A stretch of DNA of 49,499 bases from Scytonema tolypothrichoides VB-61278 (GTDB taxonomy: Bacteria; Cyanobacteriota; Cyanobacteriia; Cyanobacteriales; Nostocaceae). The position numbers and the translations under genes were made by a program. Location of the stretch: the NCBI RefSeq assembly GCF_000828085.3, contig NZ_JXCA02000022.1, forward strand, positions 69,192-118,690, read 5' to 3'. Below, one piece after another: positions 40,441 to 49,499 of this stretch (position 1 is the first letter of the stretch; each line of letters opens with the position of its first letter). The notes under the pieces were generated by a model. It ran no database searches, was not told the DNA's origin, and saw only the letters and a program-made list of their open reading frames with translations.

Positions 40441-40782
40441 CTAAGTGGACAAAAGTGTTTCATGTGCGTTGCGAGTGTATGTCCGGCACCAGACCGCACG
40501 GTACAGGCGCTAGTCATGGCGTGAGCCATAGGTATAGCGAACCAATCGCAGAGGTTTGCGATTGATTGAGTCTGCCCAACGAAAAAGCCGTATCCGCAAA
40601 GCACACGCCCACAGAGCGAACAAAGTACAGGTTTCCCCTTCGGATCTGCGCTTTCCTATGAGCGCCAAATCCAGCACGAGGAAGACGTTGGTGCAGCACT
40701 GGCTGACTACGTTCCGTATGTTCGTAGCATGGTACACAAACGCAATTGCCTTGGTTACGATTATTTCTGTCCACTTACTTAG
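40441..40782. mobile_element. 342-bp MITE-like element
   Basis: Left end CTAAGTGGACAAAA (40441) and right end, read inverted, CTAAGTAAGTGGACAGAAA (to 40782) are imperfect terminal repeats differing by a four-base AAGT duplication. The interior is GC-richer than the flanks and contains a perfect hairpin CAATCGCA (40543-40550) / TGCGATTG (40557-40564). Open frames on both strands inside have no transposase signature. Non-autonomous element. Confidence 0.65.
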
Positions 40783-41233
40783 TTTTGAGCTAAAGCACTT
40801 ACAAATAATAGAATACCCAGCCGTCGTGGTTTACCGATCCTCAAAAAACCGCAGCAAAATCATCGGTTTTACTGAGATACATATGAAACGGCTGGGCATT
40901 TTATTTTTTGCATCTCCCTAAGGACTTATAGTTACTAGTAACTTAGTAATCCTATTTGATTTGTGAAAATTGGAAAACTTATATCTTGCACCAGGATCAA
41001 AAACCGGGTTTCTTGAGAATGATAACCCTTAAAAACCTTAATTTTCCGTTTAGAAACCCGGTTTTTTAGGTCTTGTTGAGAATAGTGCAAGATCTAAGAA
41101 AATTCAGATTCCCGACAACTTTGGCCAAGTCGAGAATCTTGTTGTTTACGTAAGCGCAAGCGGGCGCCGGAGGCGATAGCCATAGGCATACGCGAGTGCA
41201 TGCCCGTAGGGCTTATGATTTAGGATTGCTATA
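40783..41233. other. Gene-free stretch with three hairpin repeats
   Basis: No gene. It holds an inverted pair ACCCAGCCGT/ACGGCTGGGC around 40816-40900, a perfect 15-bp pair AAAAACCGGGTTTCT (40999-41013) / AGAAACCCGGTTTTT (41052-41066) flanked by ATCTTGCAC/GTGCAAGAT, and a dispersed GCGCCGGAGGCGATAGCC repeat near 41165. Confidence 0.6.
40999..41066. repeat. AAACCCGG-type inverted repeat with outer arms
   Basis: Perfect 15-bp arms at 40999-41013 and 41052-41066. Outer arms TATCTTGCAC (about 40982) and GTGCAAGAT (about 41086) extend the dyad. Confidence 0.7.
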
Positions 41234-41707
41234 CTAAAACATCTCAAACAAGGCATCATCTAACTCATAACCTAGAAGTTGTGCCATCGACTGGAGGCGA
41301 GATTTACTAGGAATGCCCTGCTGTTGTAACCAATCGTTTAAAGCAAATAGCTTGTGCATTAAAAAGATTTCTAAAGCTTCAGGATTATACTGAATACCTT
41401 CTTTGGTACTGAACTGGTGCGGTACAAGCATTGCTGCATAACGGGCAAATTCCCCGGTTTTCCAATCAAGTAAAAATGGTAACCAGGGATAGCGAGTATC
41501 TAGACGGATAAACCATAGGCGTACTTCTGGAATTTCTGAAAGTTCCCGTGGATCGCCTGGTTCGAGAGTATAGTCGATATCAAAATGGAGTTGCTGCTCG
41601 TAGGATGCGATCGCCCCCTCTTGCAGCAATTTTTCAATCTCTGTGACTACGGGGGACACATCCAAGGAGTTAATGCAGTCGGTGTTGAGTGTGATGGTGA
41701 TTGTCAT
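41234..41707 (-). CDS. crr6: Crr6-family NDH-1 maturation factor
   Basis: 157 residues. The core DPRELSEIPEVRLWFIRLD, YPWLPFLLDWKTGEFARYAAMLVPHQF and NPEALEIFLMHKLF are the Crr6/DUF1817 signature (CHLORORESPIRATORY REDUCTION 6), a soluble factor for NdhI assembly in the NDH-1 arm in plants and cyanobacteria. A link to ndhCKJ, 24 kb away, is functional, not positional. It is the last gene in a run of minus-strand genes, with 74 bp to the broken gene upstream, so it may be read from that operon or from its own promoter. Confidence 0.85.
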   Translation of the reverse strand: MTITITLNTDCINSLDVSPVVTEIEKLLQEGAIASYEQQLHFDIDYTLEPGDPRELSEIPEVRLWFIRLDTRYPWLPFLLDWKTGEFARYAAMLVPHQFSTKEGIQYNPEALEIFLMHKLFALNDWLQQQGIPSKSRLQSMAQLLGYELDDALFEMF

Positions 41708-41781
41708 CGAGTCAAAAAATAGCCTCGATGATTAATACTACTCTTTTCTGGTTCAAGCTAATCTCTCATCTTTAAACTTGA

Positions 41782-42438
41782 TTAACCAGTCATCCCTATC
41801 AGGTACGAAACCCAACGCCTGAAAATCTTGTACTCTCCGACAACCAATACGGTGATATTTTTTTTAGTAGGTGTCTTGTTGAAGTCAACCTGCTCTTCAG
41901 CAATCCTAAGATCCGGATTAACTTTCACCCCTTGGATCGCTGACTGTACATTTTTTGCGATTTCCTGAATTTTACGTATGTTGAGGAAATTAGTCTTTAA
42001 ATCAAAGGTTGGTGTTTTTTTGAGCAACTCGAGAATCCACGCACAGGTAGCCGGTCCACTCTCCTGTTCTACCTCACCCTGTTCCTTCGCTTCAATAGTA
42101 ATGATCGCGCTTTGTGTGCTGGTCAAAGGAAATGCAAGAATCTGATAGTTTCTGCCACCAACATCTTGAGCCTGAAAAACACGAAGTTTCTTGCTAAAGT
42201 TTGGGTGAGAAACACTGCCTGCATAAAGTGCATCTCGTGTCAGCTGAGCAATGGAACGAGTTACTGCCTGCTAATGGTCGCCTTTGTAGTTTCTTTTGAC
42301 AAAATTTTTAAAATCAGGCTGTTCTGGCAGCTGGGAAATAATTCTCTCAAGCCCTGCATTAGTCAGTTGCAAGGTGTCGTTATCCACTGTTGAGCCTTTC
42401 CACACCAATGAGCTTTTCTCTGTACTCATGGCATACAT
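41782..42438 (-). pseudogene. Unknown-family gene split by an in-frame TAG
   Basis: Reading from ATG 42438 (MYAMSTEKSSLVWKGSTVDN) gives about 55 codons, then TAG at 42271-42273 after RNYKGDH, and the same frame goes on QAVTRSIAQLTRDALYAG to the stop at 41782. The downstream part alone is 114 codons from a TTG. Total about 218 residues; no known domain. The sequence on both sides is protein-like (DTLQLTNAGLERIISQLPEQ; NFSKKLRVFQAQDVGGRNYQ), so the TAG most likely interrupts a real gene (CAG or TGG origin). It is the last member of the acidic-repeat operon. A GAGAGG ribosome site precedes the ATG. Confidence 0.6.
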
Positions 42439-42473
42439 AAAAATTTATCCTCTCATGTCAAGTTTGCTAATAA

Positions 42474-42526
42474 GTAATGGGTAATAGGTCATAGCAACTC
42501 ATTACCAATTACCGATTACCCATTAC
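42474..42526. repeat. GTAATGGGTAAT inverted repeat
   Basis: GTAATGGGTAAT (42474-42485) and ATTACCCATTAC (42515-42526) are perfect inverted copies; the right arm covers the stop codon of the next gene. It belongs to the GGTAATNGGTAAT dispersed family and may have inserted into the operon. Confidence 0.7.
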
Positions 42527-43647
42527 CCTTCTCCCGCACTCCTCAACCCTCTATGACCATTCTGATCTGAATTAAAAGCTACAACCCGTTGCGTATGACC
42601 ACGGAACGCAATACCCAAAGTCTCGGCACTGGTGAGCCATTCTTCCACAACATCAGCAATTTCACGTAGTAAAGCTTCAAACTCAGCACGAGAAGTATTG
42701 AGGACGTATTTCTGAGCTAACCAACGGATAACACTTCTACCTGCAACCGCCATCCGGTGACGCTGGGACGCATCAACATTTTCATTGAAGTAGCGCAACA
42801 TGACTTCTTCAACGACATCCCAAGCATTGTCTGCACCAAAGAGTTTTTTTACATCGTCTGCGCCAAGAATTTTGAAGGCTTCTTCCAAAAGTTGTAAGAC
42901 TTCAATCCGTAAAACATTGACGTGACCATAAGAAGCCCATTTCAAGTTATTTCGCAGATCCAAACCTGCTCGTCTTACCGTAGCAATGCTGCCAAAACTT
43001 GGATCGAAAGCCCGCTCTCGGATAACATCGGAAATACGTTTATCGCGCCAGAACTCAGCCACGTTGTTAGTAAACTGAGTGAACAAAGTATGAAATTGAG
43101 TGTTGGGTTTGGCACTCGGCGCTGGTTTGATTGTGGTGTAACCTAAGACACGACGGTAGGTTTGCATACGATCTTTTTGGGTGTAGCGCAAGACACTGCG
43201 GCGGTCAAAGCGATACAAACCATAGGCACCATCACCCGTTGATAATCTCACCGCACCAGCATTAAACAATTCTTGAAGTTTCTTAACGGCACGAAACACA
43301 CCTATCTTCTCATGCTGGTAGAGATAATAGAGGTCGGCGACTGCGAGAATTCGCTCTGATGCGACTTGCTCATCGTAATCCTCAACACCTTCAGGTAAGC
43401 GAGTTGCGTTGATTTTGGCAGCGGCTTCGTTACCAATACCAATTAATTCTGCTAAGCCTCCATCTGGTGGTGCTGGGGTTTGGGTTTGGGCGGCGATTAG
43501 CTGAGAAACCATAGTCTCAATTTGCTGAGTTAGGGCGTCCGCTAGCTGAGGATTTTGAATTAACTGAGGTGCGAGTTTATCTGTGAGAGTTTCCCTCAGC
43601 GCCGCAATGCGATCGTATAAATTTTGATTTTCTCCTGCTGTTGTCAT
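42523..43647 (-). CDS. Unknown-family protein in acidic-repeat operon, 374 residues
   Basis: No recognised domain. The first 50 residues are helical (LYDRIAALRETLTDKLAPQLIQNPQLADALTQQIETM), then a Pro-rich linker (QTQTPAPPDGG) and a mixed alpha/beta body with VADLYYLYQHEKIGVFRAVKKLQELF, RRSVLRYTQKDRMQTYRRVLGY and FWRDKRISDVIRERAFDPS. There is no signal peptide or membrane span. It lies 60 bp after the large beta-domain protein gene and 84 bp before the TAG-split gene, same strand. Cytosolic location and partnership with the operon products are inference from context. Confidence 0.75.
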   Translation of the reverse strand: MTTAGENQNLYDRIAALRETLTDKLAPQLIQNPQLADALTQQIETMVSQLIAAQTQTPAPPDGGLAELIGIGNEAAAKINATRLPEGVEDYDEQVASERILAVADLYYLYQHEKIGVFRAVKKLQELFNAGAVRLSTGDGAYGLYRFDRRSVLRYTQKDRMQTYRRVLGYTTIKPAPSAKPNTQFHTLFTQFTNNVAEFWRDKRISDVIRERAFDPSFGSIATVRRAGLDLRNNLKWASYGHVNVLRIEVLQLLEEAFKILGADDVKKLFGADNAWDVVEEVMLRYFNENVDASQRHRMAVAGRSVIRWLAQKYVLNTSRAEFEALLREIADVVEEWLTSAETLGIAFRGHTQRVVAFNSDQNGHRGLRSAGEG

Positions 43648-43707
43648 GATGAGTCTCCTGGTCCTACTAAGTAGGGCGACATTGCTGTTAATTTCTGCAA
43701 CTGCTGG

Positions 43708-45462
43708 CTATATGGAAGGAGTTATTCTCCGCATAGGTATTGTCGGATTAGAATTTGCAGCTGGAGATATTTGGTCGATATCATCCGGTTGATAGTTTGT
43801 TGGTGGTGGAATAATCTCAGCAGCCAGACGTTGAACCTGATATAACTGGAACGCTAAATCTCTAAGGGCACGCAAAACACCTTCTCGTCGAAAAGCAGTA
43901 TTACGCACGGGAGTGAAAGAAGCAGCTTGCACGAGAATCATCAATCTTTCAGCAGTTTCTGCTATTGCTTGGGCGATTCCTAATTTACCTCCTGCTTTAG
44001 CAAGTGTTGGACCCTCCTCTGCTCCAAAACGCCACGCCCACTTCAGCAAGCCTTCAACGCTCATAGGAGGCGTGAGTTTTGATAGCTCATCTTCCGGGTA
44101 TCCAGTCCCGTCAGGTAGGGGAAAAGCCACTGGTTTTCCATCTTTGCTAGTTCTCCTACCATAGTTTCTAGGGTTTTTTGGCTGATATTTTGCTAGCGTG
44201 AAGTTAATGAGGACAGCCTGTCTCTCAGCAGGACCAAGGAAGACCAGATCCATAATTCGGTAGACTTCTTGAACAGACTCCGCTACAACTGATAAAGCTT
44301 GGGACAATAGGACGAGTTGTGTACCCACGTAGGCTCCTCCTCCAGTATCTTGTACATAGGTGTTCCAGCTATCTCTTAGGGAAACAATGTAGTCGCGGAT
44401 AATCAGGAAATTGCCGTAATTTTGTTCTTCATCCACCGTGTTTATGTGACCACGACTTAGCCCAAAAACATCAGCTAAATTTTTCATCTGTCCACCAACA
44501 TTCTCCGAGGAGTTGGTATCTTCAACGCTACCAATCAGGAGTTGGAACAAGTTATCGACACGCTGGACACGGGGACCACCAGTTGTTCCCAATTCATCGA
44601 CTAACTCCATCAACTCGGTGCGAATAATTGCCCGCATTGCATCCATATTTTGTTGATCGGCAGCTGGGTCTAGAGGATATAGCTTATCCAGCAAGGGCAG
44701 TGCGTCATTTAGTGCAGCTTTAGCACGATGATAGAGACTAGCTTGGGCACCACTGACAGTACCACCAAGGTCGTTCTGCACAGCAGCGTAGGTGCGAGCA
44801 GTCCACACGTATTCGGTGCGTCCATTGGTTTGTTTTGGCGTGAAAGTTTGAGTCAGGGTACTGAGAAATGCGTTGGGATCGCTGTTGAGGTTTCGTCCCA
44901 ATACTTCTGTTAAAGCACTATCTACAATTTGCTGTAGCGATCCGCCTCTATTATCGACAGGAGTCAGTGAGGTTTGCGTACCTGTCCCGACAATTTGATT
45001 GGAAGTCGGCAAAATATCGTAAACAGTAACAGGTTGTTCCTGAAAATCTTGTCTGGTGCGCTTTTCAGTTGCCTCATCCTCAACGAATTCAATTTTGACG
45101 CTTTGGATTCTATAGTTACTTTCGCTCTCCTCCTCATTGAAAATAACAAATAGATCAAGGCTCACAGGCTTTGAGTTGTCTTTAGACGGCAGTTTAACAC
45201 TCTTTGGTGGTTTGGTAAAACCGATGCGTCGTCTGCCTTGATAAACATTGAAATAAAGATCGGGTGTCCGATCAAAATCTAGAAACTCCTGCCGGAAGTC
45301 ATCATCTGTAAACTCAAATTCAAAGAAGCCTGTAGAATCTGTCTTACCAGAACCAAGGCGATCATCAAATCTCTGGTCGTCGTCCCAAAGCTCGACCCGA
45401 AAGCCAGAAACATTGTTACTTCCGACAGTCGTCAACTGTCCGCGAATACGATAAGTTATCAT
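43708..45462 (-). CDS. Large protein with N-terminal transthyretin/CarboxypepD_reg-like domain
   Basis: 584 residues from ATG 45462, with GGAGATAAT just upstream; the frame is open further but overlaps the protease-like gene. Residues about 1-110 look like a beta-sandwich (ITYRIRGQLTTVG, GFRVELWDDDQRFDDRLGSG, STGFFEFEFTDDDF, PDLYFNVYQGRR), the pattern of transthyretin-like or carboxypeptidase regulatory domains. The remaining 470 residues are mainly helical with no known family (LYHRAKAALNDALPLLDKLY; LRALRDLAFQLYQVQRLA). ATG follows the previous stop by one base, so translation is coupled. No secretion signal. Confidence 0.8.
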   Translation of the reverse strand: MITYRIRGQLTTVGSNNVSGFRVELWDDDQRFDDRLGSGKTDSTGFFEFEFTDDDFRQEFLDFDRTPDLYFNVYQGRRRIGFTKPPKSVKLPSKDNSKPVSLDLFVIFNEEESESNYRIQSVKIEFVEDEATEKRTRQDFQEQPVTVYDILPTSNQIVGTGTQTSLTPVDNRGGSLQQIVDSALTEVLGRNLNSDPNAFLSTLTQTFTPKQTNGRTEYVWTARTYAAVQNDLGGTVSGAQASLYHRAKAALNDALPLLDKLYPLDPAADQQNMDAMRAIIRTELMELVDELGTTGGPRVQRVDNLFQLLIGSVEDTNSSENVGGQMKNLADVFGLSRGHINTVDEEQNYGNFLIIRDYIVSLRDSWNTYVQDTGGGAYVGTQLVLLSQALSVVAESVQEVYRIMDLVFLGPAERQAVLINFTLAKYQPKNPRNYGRRTSKDGKPVAFPLPDGTGYPEDELSKLTPPMSVEGLLKWAWRFGAEEGPTLAKAGGKLGIAQAIAETAERLMILVQAASFTPVRNTAFRREGVLRALRDLAFQLYQVQRLAAEIIPPPTNYQPDDIDQISPAANSNPTIPMRRITPSI

Positions 45463-45463
45463 A

Positions 45464-46840
45464 TTATCTCCTTGCCAGCGCACTGTAAAAGTTTTTGGTA
45501 ATGACTTTTGGTTCCGCCAATCGCCTATCAAGTGCCCAACGCGACGCCGGAATTAAAAATCGTTCTGGAATAATTCCTGGATCGTTTCCAGCTGCTAAAC
45601 GCTCCCCTGCTTCCTCAATCATGCGTTGGTGCTGTGGCTTAAATCCCGTTATCTGTGCTAGTGTCTTGTCCCCCAGTTGTTTGTAAGGGGTGTAACAGAT
45701 GGTATCTACCACCAATTTTTTCGCCTTACTGAAAGTTTCTAATAATTCAGAGGGAATGTTGCCAGCACGGGGGTTAGGATAAATACGCTGCCAGATTTGG
45801 CGGTATCTTTCGGCTGTTTCAGGAAATCCCATGCGCCGCAGCAACTCAATGCTGATAAAGACTCGCAAGTAGGGTACAGGATGAGGTGCACCAGAGTGAA
45901 AGTACAGGGTTGCTTGGGGCGATCGCGCCGCAATATCCATTAAAGAGGAAACAATTGCCGGACCACCCAGCAACAAACCGGATAAATCGGCAAAAATTTC
46001 GCTATGCCAATGAGTCCAAGTGGCAGCAAGCACGCGGCTCATTCCCGCTTTTAGCAATCGCATGGCGATCGCACGAGGAATTTCCTGCCGCAAATTTAAA
46101 TCAGTTTGCAAATTATGAGAAACCTCATGCAAAATTGCCCCCAGTGTCCAGGGATTCACCAAACGGTGATAAGGTAGCTGAATCAAGGGGAAGGGATTAA
46201 TTTGCTGTCCCAGTTTCGACAGAGGAATACCGCGCCGGAATGTCGCTGGAGAAAAGCCAGTTTTCATGTACGAAAACGGCGCGGGTGCTGGAATTGACCT
46301 GGCTATCCCCAAGCCCATGTAGATATCTTGGTAGCAATCTAAGGCAATGCGATCGCAACCTAACAACCAGTTGCCAAATTTGGTTTGTCTTTGTCCAAAC
46401 AACTCGAAATAAAAATCCCAAATTTGCTCGATAGCGCGCACCCGTTCGTGAGCTCCGTCTTTGCGACTCATCAGCTGTTGCAGATGGTCAGTATCTGGCG
46501 CTTTGATAGCAGCTTCAGCAGTTTGACCAACTAGCCTTGACATTTCTATCAACTGGACTCTGAGCGAACTTATCAGTTGATTCACCGCATCAATGTGGGC
46601 GTCCGAAGGGCTAGCAGGATCTGTACCAAATTCATCGTGACGAAAGGGACGCAAAGCAGCTGCGTGTCTAGTAACATTCAGCGCCTGTACCCTCAGCCAA
46701 GATTTGAAATTGGGTAGTGATGATTCACCAGCCGTGCTATAGCTATCCTCCAAACCACTGAAACCGTTTAACTGCTCAGTCTCTTCTTCGACGCTTAATG
46801 ATGTTAGTGTTTCCAATAGTCCGTTCATATTCTTTCCCAT
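45464..46840 (-). CDS. HExxH zincin-like protein in acidic-repeat operon
   Basis: 458 residues. A single HEVSH (His238-His242) within LGAILHEVSHNLQTDL and a likely third ligand Glu281 in WHSEIFADLSGLLLGG give the HExxH...E pattern of gluzincin-type metalloproteases. Up to about 200 the protein is helical, with no signal peptide; residues 30-45 are acidic. The C-terminal 150 residues (RMGFPETAERYRQIWQRIYP, ITGFKPQHQRMIEEAGERL) have no known family. It lies 36 bp after the second acidic-repeat gene and one base before the next. Protease activity is inferred from the motif; processing of the acidic-repeat proteins is a testable idea. Confidence 0.75.
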   Translation of the reverse strand: MGKNMNGLLETLTSLSVEEETEQLNGFSGLEDSYSTAGESSLPNFKSWLRVQALNVTRHAAALRPFRHDEFGTDPASPSDAHIDAVNQLISSLRVQLIEMSRLVGQTAEAAIKAPDTDHLQQLMSRKDGAHERVRAIEQIWDFYFELFGQRQTKFGNWLLGCDRIALDCYQDIYMGLGIARSIPAPAPFSYMKTGFSPATFRRGIPLSKLGQQINPFPLIQLPYHRLVNPWTLGAILHEVSHNLQTDLNLRQEIPRAIAMRLLKAGMSRVLAATWTHWHSEIFADLSGLLLGGPAIVSSLMDIAARSPQATLYFHSGAPHPVPYLRVFISIELLRRMGFPETAERYRQIWQRIYPNPRAGNIPSELLETFSKAKKLVVDTICYTPYKQLGDKTLAQITGFKPQHQRMIEEAGERLAAGNDPGIIPERFLIPASRWALDRRLAEPKVITKNFYSALARR

Positions 46841-46876
46841 CCCAATTGCAACAGCCAGAATTACCCATGAGCGTTT

Positions 46877-47623
46877 CTAGGGACGACACTTTCCATTTGT
46901 CTTTGACATGAGCTTATGTTGGGCTCGATGGGATTTCTTCATCACCTGGGCGACTTTCTTGGGATTATTTAAAACTTTAGCTGTATGACCAGCCAAAGCT
47001 CTTAAAGCAGTTGTTTTTGAAAGTGGTTTGCCTTGTGCAACTTGATTGGCTAAAGTTCCCACTGTTCCTTTCAAAATTTGTGGTACGGTTTGCAACAGTT
47101 GGCGTGTTTTTGGGTTTTTGTGCAGAGTTTGACCCACCTTGGCGACTCCTTGAATCAAGGATGGAGTGACACTTGTCACCGCTTTTGCAGCTTGTGGAAT
47201 TAATCTGGCTGCGAGTGGTATTAATGCACCTAAAAAAGCTTCTGCTTCCGCTTCACTTTCGCTGTGAGCTGCTTTGTATGCAAGATTTTCCATGACGACT
47301 TCATACTCAGTCATTGGGGCAGATTCAAACTCAGACTCATATTCGTATTCACCTTCCCCTAGTCCCAGTGCACCACCTAAACCCTGTAGTAAGTCGCCGA
47401 TAAATGGATCTCCCTCGTATTCGCCTTCATACTCAAATTCAAATTCTCGCTGGCGTCTTCTACGACCACCTCCAATCAATCTACCAATTGCTTTCACTGC
47501 CATTGGCGCTACACTTGAAAGTAACGGAGCTAACAGAGGGAAAAATTCTTCACTTTCGTACTCGTTGGCGAATTCACACTCGTATTCGCGGTCATGTCCA
47601 GTTTCTAGTTCGTATTCAAACAT
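46877..47623 (-). CDS. Acidic-aromatic repeat protein, paralog 2
   Basis: 248 residues. The order of segments is: acidic-aromatic 2-27 (FEYELETG, EYECEFANEYESEEF), hydrophobic/cationic 28-59 (LLAPLLSSVAPMAVKAIGRL, then GGGRRRRQR), acidic-aromatic 60-72 (EFEFEYEGEYEG), Gly-rich 73-90, acidic-aromatic 91-109, and from 121 SESEAEAEAFLGALIPLAARL into a basic C-terminal domain with KNPKTRQLLQTVPQIL and LANQVAQGKPLSKTTALRAL. The C-terminal 130 residues are clearly related to those of the upstream gene, so the two are tandem paralogs. No signal peptide. I have seen similar unnamed proteins in cyanobacteria and soil bacteria; no function is known to me. Confidence 0.85.
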   Translation of the reverse strand: MFEYELETGHDREYECEFANEYESEEFFPLLAPLLSSVAPMAVKAIGRLIGGGRRRRQREFEFEYEGEYEGDPFIGDLLQGLGGALGLGEGEYEYESEFESAPMTEYEVVMENLAYKAAHSESEAEAEAFLGALIPLAARLIPQAAKAVTSVTPSLIQGVAKVGQTLHKNPKTRQLLQTVPQILKGTVGTLANQVAQGKPLSKTTALRALAGHTAKVLNNPKKVAQVMKKSHRAQHKLMSKTNGKCRP

Positions 47624-47671
47624 TTTTTGACCTCTTTTTTATTTGTGTGTTTGCAACTGCAACCCAAACTG

Positions 47672-48505
47672 TTAGAACTCATAAACTGGTTCTCTTCTTT
47701 TCCGGGGTGCTGGTTTGGCGACTTTACTAGCAGCCTGAGACGAACGCACTAAGGTTTTGGCACAAGTTATAGGATTGCCAAGGACTTTACGTGTTTCATT
47801 CGCCATAACACGAGCAGCGGTTTTAGAACTGATGGGTTTTCCTTGGGCTGCCTGTCGTGCTAAGGTATTGCTCGCTCTAGCAACAATGGTGGGTACTGTT
47901 TTCACCAAAGGACGGGTGCTGGGAGATTTGCGTAAAGTACGTGTGAGTGTGGCAGCACCTTTAACCAGCTTCGGGGAAATTAGCCGTATTGAGGCAGATT
48001 TGATGGGGATAATTCTGGCTGTGAAAGCACCAGTGTAAGCTTCTGCTTCTGCTTCACTCTGTACTTGGCTTGCCATAGCTGCAAGAACTTCTGCTAAAGC
48101 TTCTGGCTGTGGTACTGCTTCGTTTTCGTACTCGCTCTCAAATTCACTGGTTAATTCATACTCACTTTCAAATTCGTACTCGAATTCCCCTTCACGCGCC
48201 AACTGACCTGCAATTGTACCTAGCGCTCCACCAACAGCTGGTCCACCTATGGCTGTACCCACAGCGCGAGCAGCAATTGGTGCGATCTTTTTGAGTACGG
48301 GGGCTAATTTTCTGGCAATTCCCCGTATTTTCTTAAAGAAAGCTTCGCTCTCATACTCACTTTCGTACTCACCTTCACCTTCACCAAGACCCCCAAGAAA
48401 TTCTTCGCCTTCGTACTCACCTTCGTATTCGTTCTGAAGTTCATCCTCGAATTCGTTCTCAAATTCACTCTCGAATTCGTGCTGCATGGTTTCTCCGTCC
48501 AACAT
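47672..48505 (-). CDS. Acidic-aromatic repeat protein, paralog 1
   Basis: 277 residues with AAGGAG before ATG 48505. Segments: acidic-aromatic 9-56 (EFESEFENEFEDE ... EGEYESEYESE), cationic amphipathic helix 57-81 (FFKKIRGIARKLAPVLKKIA), Gly/Ala-rich stretch 82-103 with GxxxG-type spacing (GTAIGGPAVGGALGTIAG), acidic-aromatic 105-130, Ala/Glu linker with SEAEAEA (150-156), then a basic domain 161-277 with RKSPSTRPLVKTVPTIV and LARQAAQGKPISSKTA, ending in VYEF. Opposite charges alternate along the chain. First gene of the operon, divergent from the LuxR-type gene. The alternating Glu-aromatic pattern could form beta strands; that is inference. Confidence 0.85.
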   Translation of the reverse strand: MLDGETMQHEFESEFENEFEDELQNEYEGEYEGEEFLGGLGEGEGEYESEYESEAFFKKIRGIARKLAPVLKKIAPIAARAVGTAIGGPAVGGALGTIAGQLAREGEFEYEFESEYELTSEFESEYENEAVPQPEALAEVLAAMASQVQSEAEAEAYTGAFTARIIPIKSASIRLISPKLVKGAATLTRTLRKSPSTRPLVKTVPTIVARASNTLARQAAQGKPISSKTAARVMANETRKVLGNPITCAKTLVRSSQAASKVAKPAPRKRREPVYEF

Positions 48506-48812
48506 TTCGTGACTCCTTGGATGGGAATGCTTACAGCATCTAGGTATAACCGCTATTACAACTTTGTCACCAGTCGCTTTTTCTTAGGAAACACAACTTT
48601 GGTAGCTCAATTGAATGTAACTCGTTTAAGCTACATATATTTTTCTATTAAACTAATAGTACCCATTAGGGTGATTGCATAAACTATTAGAAATAGTTGT
48701 AATTTATTTATCAATTTAAGAAGATTTATGTATTGATTGCGTAAAATTTGCTTAATTCTTTGAATTAATTATTTAAATCAATTTTGAGTCAACTTAAGGA
48801 TGAATACAAGCA
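48506..48812. promoter_or_regulatory. Divergent intergenic region between acidic-repeat operon and LuxR-type gene
   Basis: 307 bp, AT-rich, holding both promoters. No clear inverted repeat or consensus box was identified. The head-to-head layout suggests the LuxR-type protein controls the operon. Confidence 0.4.
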
Positions 48813-49238
48813 ATGAAGACCTCAAAAAGCAACAAGCCGATTACTGCATACAATAATCAATTGGTGCTGTCGTCTGAGAAAGAGGCTCTATTGGAGGTTT
48901 TGGTCAAACAAGTTGCTACCTCTGCTCCCTATAAGGTTTTTAAACTGACTGAACAGATGATAAATGAAGTTATTTTTGAATCTGATATAGATGGTGTACG
49001 TTACTACGTGGTACGCTCTACACCTAAATCTCAAGAAAAAATTAGTCTCAGTCCCCGTGAACAAGCGATCGCTAAATTAGTTGCACAGGGTCTTCCTAAC
49101 AAATCGATTGGTATTAATCTTGACATTAGTCCTTGGACAGTCGCCACACACCTGCGCCGTATTTTTGTCAAGCTAGGGGTCACTTCTAGAACCGCTATGA
49201 TTGCTCGTGTTTTCAAAGAAAATCTCCTAAAAGAGTAA
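48813..49238 (+). CDS. LuxR-type HTH regulator without receiver domain
   Basis: 141 residues. The C-terminal half (about 76-138) is a LuxR/NarL HTH: LSPREQAIAKLVAQGLPNKSIGINLDISPWTVATHLRRIFVKL. The N-terminal 75 residues (EKEALLEVLVKQVATSAPYKVFKLTEQ, GVRYYVVRSTP) lack the phospho-acceptor Asp of a receiver and match no sensor domain I know. It starts 307 bp from the acidic-repeat operon, in the opposite direction, and is the natural candidate regulator. Activating signal unknown. Confidence 0.88.
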   Translation: MKTSKSNKPITAYNNQLVLSSEKEALLEVLVKQVATSAPYKVFKLTEQMINEVIFESDIDGVRYYVVRSTPKSQEKISLSPREQAIAKLVAQGLPNKSIGINLDISPWTVATHLRRIFVKLGVTSRTAMIARVFKENLLKE

Positions 49239-49384
49239 ACAGTGATACTAGTATCTTTTATGTTTGCAACATATCCGCTCCCCTGACCCCTAAGCAAGAG
49301 GGTTGGGGGGATGTCCATAGCAAACATTTAGCGAAAAAGTCTCGGAAATAAGGTGGTTAGAGTTCTTTGCTTGGGTTGGAGGCT

Positions 49385-49413
49385 TTGACACTCTCCGGGC
49401 TAAAGCCACGGAG
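49385..49413 (-). mobile_element. Candidate IS200/IS605-type right-end hairpin
   Basis: On the minus strand the segment reads as a CTCCG stem with inner GGCT/AGCC hairpin and closes in GAGTGTCAA. CTCCG (49393-49397) pairs with CGGAG (49409-49413); GGCT (49398-49401) pairs with AGCC (49404-49407). This CTCCG...CGGAGAGTGTCAA form follows tnpB genes in many cyanobacterial IS605-type elements. The gene itself would lie to the right, beyond the window. All three minus-strand frames have a stop within the last 20 bases, so only the element end is inside. Confidence 0.45.
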
Positions 49414-49499
49414 ATTCTCCCATCTAGCCCAATCCCCCGTGGAACTGTATTCATGGAGTTGCCCCCTACCGTTTCTGGAACTACCTCACGGTAGTGTTA

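What the first reader, a model, noticed from the sequence alone, without database searches (positions are those of the whole stretch)
41782..49238. Uncharacterised operon: two acidic-aromatic repeat proteins, a zincin-like protein, a large beta-domain protein and a LuxR-type regulator
Six minus-strand genes with gaps of 1-84 bp form a transcription unit, with a divergent LuxR-type gene at its head. Two tandem paralogs have alternating Glu-Phe/Tyr tracts and cationic segments, followed by an HExxH protein, a 584-residue protein with an N-terminal beta-sandwich-like domain, and two proteins of unknown family. None carries a secretion signal. Hypothesis: the paralogs are self-neutralised precursors or assembly proteins whose cationic parts are released by the zincin, for example as a membrane-active peptide or structural polymer. 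The gene layout is seen directly; the role is inference.
Basis: partly seen in the sequence, partly recalled or inferred. Interest (0 to 1): 0.85.

Follow-up and report, generated by a model that had tools for sequence, protein, structure and literature searches.

The report
Mobile operon with interchangeable toxin-like cargo
A small mobile gene cluster, found from cyanobacteria to soil bacteria, combines two unusual acidic repeat proteins, a protease-like protein and two unknown proteins with a swappable toxin-like gene, which hints at an undescribed way for bacteria to package and use toxins.

Summary
The operon is real and is a conserved system. Window 41782-49238 holds EF1 and EF2 (acidic-aromatic tracts plus a cationic C-terminal domain), an HExxH protein, F3, p374 and a divergent LuxR gene. 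The core proteins reach no curated family cut-off in the libraries tried. The set recurs in seven phyla by record title: of 30 loci with enough flank, 30 have EF, 30 p374, 28 F3 and 23 a LuxR gene.

That slot varies: relatives carry nuclease, peptidoglycan-hydrolase-type, M35 or Het-C domains, with shared N-terminal modules and swapped C-termini. In one close pair EF1 is 99.6% identical over 265 residues, after which the tails do not align. Within the genus the locus is present or absent as an island.

Best reading: a polymorphic effector operon with an undescribed, Sec-independent packaging/delivery core. Acidic tracts bind tagged cargo and mask EF1's cationic glycine-zipper segment; the HExxH protein unmasks it. 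Cargo polymorphism is shown by sequence; assembly, cleavage and delivery are inferred. Against it: in 9 of 28 loci an M20 peptidase gene, not cargo, follows p374.

The parts
48813..49238 (+). LuxR-type (GerE) regulator, 141 aa, divergent from the operon
   Evidence: Pfam GerE E=9.8e-17; a LuxR gene lies in 23 of 30 well-flanked loci, on the opposite strand in 21
47672..48505 (-). EF1: acidic-aromatic tracts, cationic glycine-zipper-like segment, cationic C-terminal (EFC) domain; 277 aa
   Evidence: dN/dS 0.17 against L009
48194..48340 (-). EF1 residues 56-104: net +9 segment ending in a Gly-rich stretch, between tracts of -23 and -13
   Evidence: similar segment in 32 of 39 loci by a simple pattern
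46877..47623 (-). EF2: paralogue of EF1, 248 aa, same EFC domain
   Evidence: 43.5% identity over 131 aa to EF1; EFC profile; dN/dS 0.22
45464..46840 (-). HExxH protein, 458 aa, predicted mostly helical
   Evidence: motif residues invariant in 35 relatives; AlphaFold2 mean pLDDT 78.8, pTM 0.81; no Foldseek PDB match, best E 0.6
46115..46129 (-). HEVSH motif (residues 238-242)
43708..45462 (-). F3: 584 aa from its ATG; conserved C-terminal core with an N-terminal domain that differs between lineages
   Evidence: dN/dS 0.19
45271..45423 (-). weak transthyretin-like match in the F3 N-terminus
   Evidence: Pfam TTR-52 E=1.4e-4, below cut-off
42523..43647 (-). p374: 374 aa, one of the most conserved members, no known family
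   Evidence: 50-90% identity to 30 relatives; dN/dS 0.12
41782..42438 (-). interrupted cargo gene (the 3' part, 41782-42126, is the ORF seen)
   Evidence: tblastn of the intact L009 cargo, residues 1-116, to 42438-42088, E=1.9e-22; pieces searched apart match L009 and L018
42271..42273 (-). in-frame stop that interrupts the cargo gene
41795..49499 (.). part inside the window of a ~9.7-kb presence/absence island between crr6 and a Fur-like gene; it runs on about 2 kb past the window
   Evidence: absent from 4 of 7 congeners, whose flanks meet within about 0.2-0.75 kb

Best explanation
A mobile polymorphic-effector operon. The core (EF1, EF2, HExxH protein, F3, p374, LuxR) packages and delivers, or stages for release, a swappable effector encoded just after p374 or as a C-terminal tail of EF1. 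Shown by sequence: conserved linkage of the core, toxin-type domains in the slot, shared N-terminal modules with unrelated C-termini, EF1 tails swapped between near-identical operons, absence of obvious Sec signals, presence/absence as an island. Inferred: alternating Glu-Phe/Tyr tracts of EF1/EF2 stick to one another and to the short acidic tags of the cargo, making a particle in which the cationic glycine-zipper segment of EF1 is masked; the HExxH protein cuts or rearranges it; the unmasked segment perturbs a membrane so that the effector crosses. F3, whose N-terminal domain differs between lineages, is a candidate recognition part; p374 is the structural or adaptor core.
For: Linkage: 39 loci with the HExxH gene tabulated; of 30 with at least 2.5 kb up- and 5 kb downstream, EF in 30, two or more EF in 26, p374 in 30, F3 in 28. 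Slot content: of 20 cargo proteins scanned, 9 pass a Pfam cut-off: GIY-YIG, DNA/RNA endonuclease, M15 peptidase, M35 (two), DUF2272 (with a sub-cut-off CHAP match), Het-C, and two with peptidoglycan-binding domains. Modular swapping: L011, L013 and L054 share a ~125-aa N-terminal module at 72-77% identity and nothing detectable after it; L009, L018 and the window pieces share another; the C-terminal domain of L054 (cyanobacterium) matches that of L038 (Verrucomicrobia MAG), 34% over 248 columns, E=1.5e-24, on a different N-terminus. L012/L014: p374 98.7%, HExxH 97.1%, EF1 residues 1-265 99.6% identical, but EF1 tails and slot genes gave no alignment at E<=1. Tags: in L055, EF proteins and three cargo genes share an N-terminal (W)LFE[A/T]P; WLFE[A/T]P occurs 3 times in that 7.4-Mb genome, each at one of these cargo genes. 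Acid-hydrophobic-acid triplets (two or more): 8 of 16 slot genes against 11 of 128 distant genes, p=4e-8. Purifying selection on five core genes, dN/dS 0.12-0.22.
Against: In 9 of 28 loci the gene after p374 is the M20 peptidase, in 2 a third EF and in 1 a LuxR gene, so cargo is not universal, mainly outside cyanobacteria. 11 of 20 cargo proteins scanned pass no Pfam cut-off. 8 of 16 slot genes have fewer than two tag triplets. No immunity gene is recurrent. No secretion ATPase, pore or tail gene was recognised in the operon. M20, amidohydrolase and PLP-decarboxylase neighbours are unexplained. The p374 fold is unresolved (pLDDT 44.5). The window's own cargo gene is broken, so this copy may lack its effector. 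Protease activity, assembly, membrane activity and export are untested.
Confidence: 0.57

Rival explanations
1. EF1 and EF2 are themselves the agents: self-neutralised precursors of membrane-active peptides (bacteriocin-like), matured by the HExxH protein. The slot genes are accessory passengers.
For: EF1 +9 segment between -23 and -13 tracts, conserved in 32 of 39 loci by a simple pattern; slot without cargo in many loci; EF present in 30 of 30 well-flanked loci.
Against: EFC domain of about 100-130 residues is conserved in both paralogues, more than a peptide needs; cargo tags and EF1 tail swapping are left unexplained; no leader or export gene was recognised.
Confidence: 0.2
2. An internal defence or cell-suicide system: infection or stress triggers the HExxH protein, EF1/EF2 damage the membrane and nuclease or lipase cargo kills the cell.
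For: Distant HExxH relatives (24-28% identity) on rhizobial plasmids lie near CHAT, patatin, S8 and phospholipase D-like genes; patchy island.
Against: Peptidoglycan-type cargo (M15, DUF2272) has no use in the cytosol; core and tested neighbours match no PADLOC model at E<=0.01 apart from the GIY-YIG part of one cargo. Those distant relatives are not the canonical operon.
Confidence: 0.12
3. Cargo is delivered by a contractile injection system elsewhere in the genome; the operon core is a loading or chaperone module.
For: Tail-sheath matches in 7 of 10 operon-bearing genomes, 6 of them above the cut-off.
Against: No sheath match in 3 of 10 operon-bearing genomes (G061, G155, G439), while 3 of 3 operon-lacking congeners have one. 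The type VI sheath family was not searched.
Confidence: 0.06
4. A metabolic or storage system: EF proteins are a Glu/aromatic-rich reserve and the M20, amidohydrolase and decarboxylase genes process it.
For: M20 in 16 and amidohydrolase in 13 of 30 well-flanked loci.
Against: These genes are missing from most cyanobacterial loci; toxin-type cargo and swapping are unexplained.
Confidence: 0.05

Closest known systems
Polymorphic toxin systems (Zhang et al. 2012, PMC3482391; passages seen)
   Same: Shared N-terminal modules with swapped C-terminal toxin-type domains; Het-C, nuclease and metallopeptidase domains; a peptidase in the neighbourhood
   Different: None of the trafficking domains named in the passages (PAAR, VgrG, WxG/LxG/LDxD, TPS, PVC-metallopeptidase) appeared in the Pfam scans; no recurrent immunity gene; core families are orphans
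PVC-type / extracellular contractile injection systems
   Same: An HExxH protein beside toxin-type cargo; broad phylum range
   Different: No sheath or baseplate gene recognised in the operon; 3 of 10 operon-bearing genomes have no sheath match
p374-domain loci with an S8 protease on Tolypothrix and Burkholderia plasmids (found here)
   Same: A ~240-residue p374 domain (hhalign E 1.9e-15 to 3.5e-13); nearby S8 peptidase and peptidoglycan-binding or amidase genes
   Different: 26% identity; no HExxH, F3 or EFC match in the stretches fetched
Self-assembling alternating peptides such as FEFEFEFE (PMC5770463, abstract in a search listing)
   Same: Same alternation as the EF tracts; amyloid formation with Arg-Phe peptides
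   Different: Short synthetic peptides; whether the EF tracts assemble is untested

Membership tests
Polymorphic toxin system | conserved N-terminal part with swapped C-terminal parts | tested here: met
   three sets: L011/L013/L054, L009/L018/window pieces, EF1 tails of L012/L014
Polymorphic toxin system | toxin-type domains in the variable part | tested here: met
   7 of 20 cargo proteins scanned pass a Pfam cut-off for a catalytic or Het-C domain, 2 more for a peptidoglycan-binding domain only, 11 for none
Polymorphic toxin system | a known trafficking domain at the N-terminus | tested here: not met
   none in the Pfam scans of core and cargo; no Sec-like segment in the proteins checked
Polymorphic toxin system | adjacent immunity gene | tested here: inconclusive
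   a 109-aa gene follows EF1 in L012 and L014 but is 95% identical while the tails differ, so it does not behave as tail-specific immunity; no recurrent small gene
Zincin metallopeptidase | HExxH plus a further acidic ligand | tested here: met
   H238, E239, H242, E281, D285 invariant in 35 sequences; which of E281/D285 binds metal is not known
Zincin metallopeptidase | zincin fold | tested here: inconclusive
   model mostly helical; no PDB match at E<=0.001; active-site geometry could not be measured
Contractile injection system | sheath or baseplate genes in the cluster | tested here: not met
   no such match among the eight window genes; sheath not in all operon-bearing genomes
Known anti-phage defence system | match to PADLOC models | tested here: not met
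   0 of 5 core proteins at E<=0.01
Bacteriocin / membrane-active peptide | membrane activity of the cationic segment | not testable with these tools
   charge pattern only

The most novel reading that the evidence does not exclude
A new kind of protein-delivery machine: intrinsically sticky acidic-aromatic tracts act as a universal docking code, so that any effector with a short acidic tag is drawn into a particle with EF1/EF2, and the HExxH protein switches the particle from a masked to a membrane-active state that carries the effector across a membrane without Sec, tail tube or secretion ATPase.
Probability: 0.35. Interest if true: 0.93.

Novelty: new variant of a known kind. Interest (0 to 1): 0.8.

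Why it matters
If right, it adds a class of effector-delivery system whose core families have no recognised relatives in the libraries searched, shared by at least seven phyla. It would give a testable rule (a short acidic tag) for what is loaded, and a programmable way to move proteins. Even without delivery, it ties four orphan protein families into one conserved system and explains a set of unannotated Glu/Phe/Tyr-repeat proteins.

Tried and rejected
Structure of p374: AlphaFold2 on 31 sequences gave pLDDT 44.5, unusable. Fold of the HExxH protein: no Foldseek match. PDB sequence searches for the HExxH protein (28, 104), p374 (103) and F3 (105): nothing below E=0.03; EF1/EF2 were not searched there. 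Viral origin: p374 found no match in phage records (38) or viral contigs (97). RNA elements: none at gathering scores in 40500-49499 (107). F3, F5 and the HExxH family show no profile match to the S8-type plasmid proteins (37). The idea of a conserved WLFEAP tag in all operons was dropped: 0 of 60 family genomes have WLFEAP (61), and the tag is seen only in L055; other loci have differently worded acidic tags. A cruder acid-peak test was weaker (33 genes against 248, p=1e-4; it counted crr6 and the window's own fragment). Horizontal transfer between phyla as the main story was dropped: on a quick 34-row tree Cyanobacteriota form one clade and Acidobacteriota need two changes (95), so the system looks old with local movement. 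Literature: eight searches found no description; most subscription papers are not held.

Full report
What is there. The five core genes and the divergent LuxR gene are as described, with gaps of 48, 36, 1 and 60 bp. The next gene downstream, crr6, encodes a CRR6-family NdhI maturation factor (Pfam E=1.6e-74), which points to a cyanobacterium. The core proteins pass no curated cut-off in Pfam or NCBIfam and match nothing convincing in PHROGs or PADLOC.

Conservation. A profile of three HExxH proteins found 35 relatives in public genomes. By record title they span Cyanobacteriota, Acidobacteriota, Actinomycetota, Pseudomonadota, Planctomycetota, Verrucomicrobiota and Armatimonadota; many are MAGs. 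ORF clustering and profiles recover the neighbours. I tabulated 39 loci (window, L008-L043, L054, L055). Of 30 with at least 2.5 kb upstream and 5 kb downstream of the HExxH gene: EF 30, at least two EF 26, p374 30, F3 28, any LuxR 23 (opposite strand 21), M20 16, F5 15, amidohydrolase 13. A complete copy lies on a Paraburkholderia plasmid.

Rarity and mobility. p374 was found in 5 of 292 cyanobacterial-phylum genomes, in 3 of 347 in the phylum of Silvibacterium, one of them weak and one the centre itself, and in 1 of 396 in the phylum of Mycobacterium sp. PS03-16, the centre itself. In the window's genus the HExxH gene is in 3 of 7 genomes and crr6 in 7 of 7. In the four without it, sequence at crr6 is followed within about 0.2-0.75 kb by sequence that in the window's genome starts about 9.7 kb further on: an empty site. 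The two other carriers sit at the same place, each shown on one flank only. Flanks are 90-95% identical where operon DNA is mostly 73-83%, and dS is 0.77-1.32 for core genes against 0.37 for crr6. The copies are therefore older than the split of their hosts, or evolve faster. On a quick tree of 34 loci Cyanobacteriota form one clade.

The cargo slot. The intact gene after p374 in Brasilonema (L009) has a nuclease C-terminus (Endonuclea_NS_2, 27.6 bits, cut-off 27). The two pieces, searched apart, match L009 and L018; the C-terminal 102 residues match nothing else in my set. In 28 loci with a gene within 700 bp after p374, that gene is non-core in 16 (one, in L025, is probably a spurious ORF), a third EF in 2, M20 in 9 and LuxR in 1. 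Of 20 cargo proteins scanned with Pfam, 9 pass a cut-off: GIY-YIG (L011), endonuclease (L009), M15 (L006), M35 (L019, L025), DUF2272 (L017), Het-C (L028), peptidoglycan-binding (L012, L022).

Module swapping. L011, L013 and L054 share a ~125-residue module at 72-77% identity and then diverge completely; L009 and L018 share another at 49%. The C-terminal part of L054 matches that of L038, from another phylum, on a different N-terminus (34%, E=1.5e-24). In L012/L014 the core is 97-99% identical except F3 (78%), EF1 is 99.6% identical over residues 1-265, and then both the EF1 tails and the slot genes fail to align at E<=1. This pattern defines polymorphic toxins (PMC3482391, passages).

Tags. 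In L055 the EF proteins and three cargo genes begin with (W)LFE[A/T]P; the WLFE[A/T]P pattern occurs only at these three genes in that genome, and the stricter WLFEAP is absent from 60 family genomes, which did not include that one. Elsewhere the tags are short acidic-hydrophobic stretches: 8 of 16 slot genes have two or more triplets, against 11 of 128 genes more than 6 kb away (p=4e-8). Half of the slot genes do not.

Anatomy and mechanism. EF1 has tract (-23), segment (+9), tract (-13), then a cationic C-terminal domain (+20). The segment reads K/R-rich and then Gly-rich, similar in 32 of 39 loci by a simple pattern. Peptides such as FEFEFEFE form amyloids with Arg-Phe partners (PMC5770463, abstract in listing). 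From this I infer masking and co-assembly. The HExxH protein is mostly helical in a fair model (pLDDT 78.8) and resembles no solved structure; protease activity is inferred from invariant residues alone. Peptidoglycan-type cargo without Sec-like N-termini implies some other exit from the cytosol, which I assign to the core. That is the least certain step.

Wider family. A p374 domain occurs in plasmid loci of Tolypothrix and Burkholderia pyrrocinia beside S8 peptidases. Distant HExxH relatives on rhizobial plasmids lie near CHAT, patatin and phospholipase D-like genes. This leaves a defence role open.

Known or new. Eight literature searches gave no description; in three Aravind-group papers I looked only at passages for chosen words. 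The arrangement belongs to the known kind 'polymorphic toxins' by its swapping, but no known trafficking domain was seen and the core is orphan: a new variant, possibly more.

Noticed in passing
L044:7507-18725 and L045:1-14432: Plasmid gene clusters with a p374-like domain, an S8 serine peptidase, peptidoglycan-binding or amidase genes and several orphan proteins; probably a sister system.
   Followed up: partly
L046:3426-13148 and L047:1806-12975: Distant HExxH relatives next to CHAT, patatin, phospholipase D-like or C25 peptidase genes on conjugative rhizobial plasmids.
   Followed up: partly
L048:7644-13368: Paraburkholderia phymatum plasmid: a QGEYQGEY-repeat protein, a distant HExxH protein and the amidohydrolase side by side, without p374 or F3 matches.
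   Followed up: no
L019, L022, L023, L024, L025, L027, L029, L041 upstream of EF1: A pyridoxal-dependent decarboxylase precedes EF1 in eight acidobacterial loci; role unknown.
   Followed up: no
L012:8541-8870 and L014:7493-7822: A 109-aa hydrophobic-looking protein between EF1 and EF2, 95% identical although the EF1 tails differ.
   Followed up: partly
C-termini of acidobacterial EF2 proteins, e.g. L019:8843-9886: A conserved Cys-rich ending (YCRCCGQVLR) that looks metal-binding.
   Followed up: no
L056:3000-18900: A very divergent copy (EF-like, HExxH, two orphan proteins, p374, LuxR) that may show the minimal set.
   Followed up: partly
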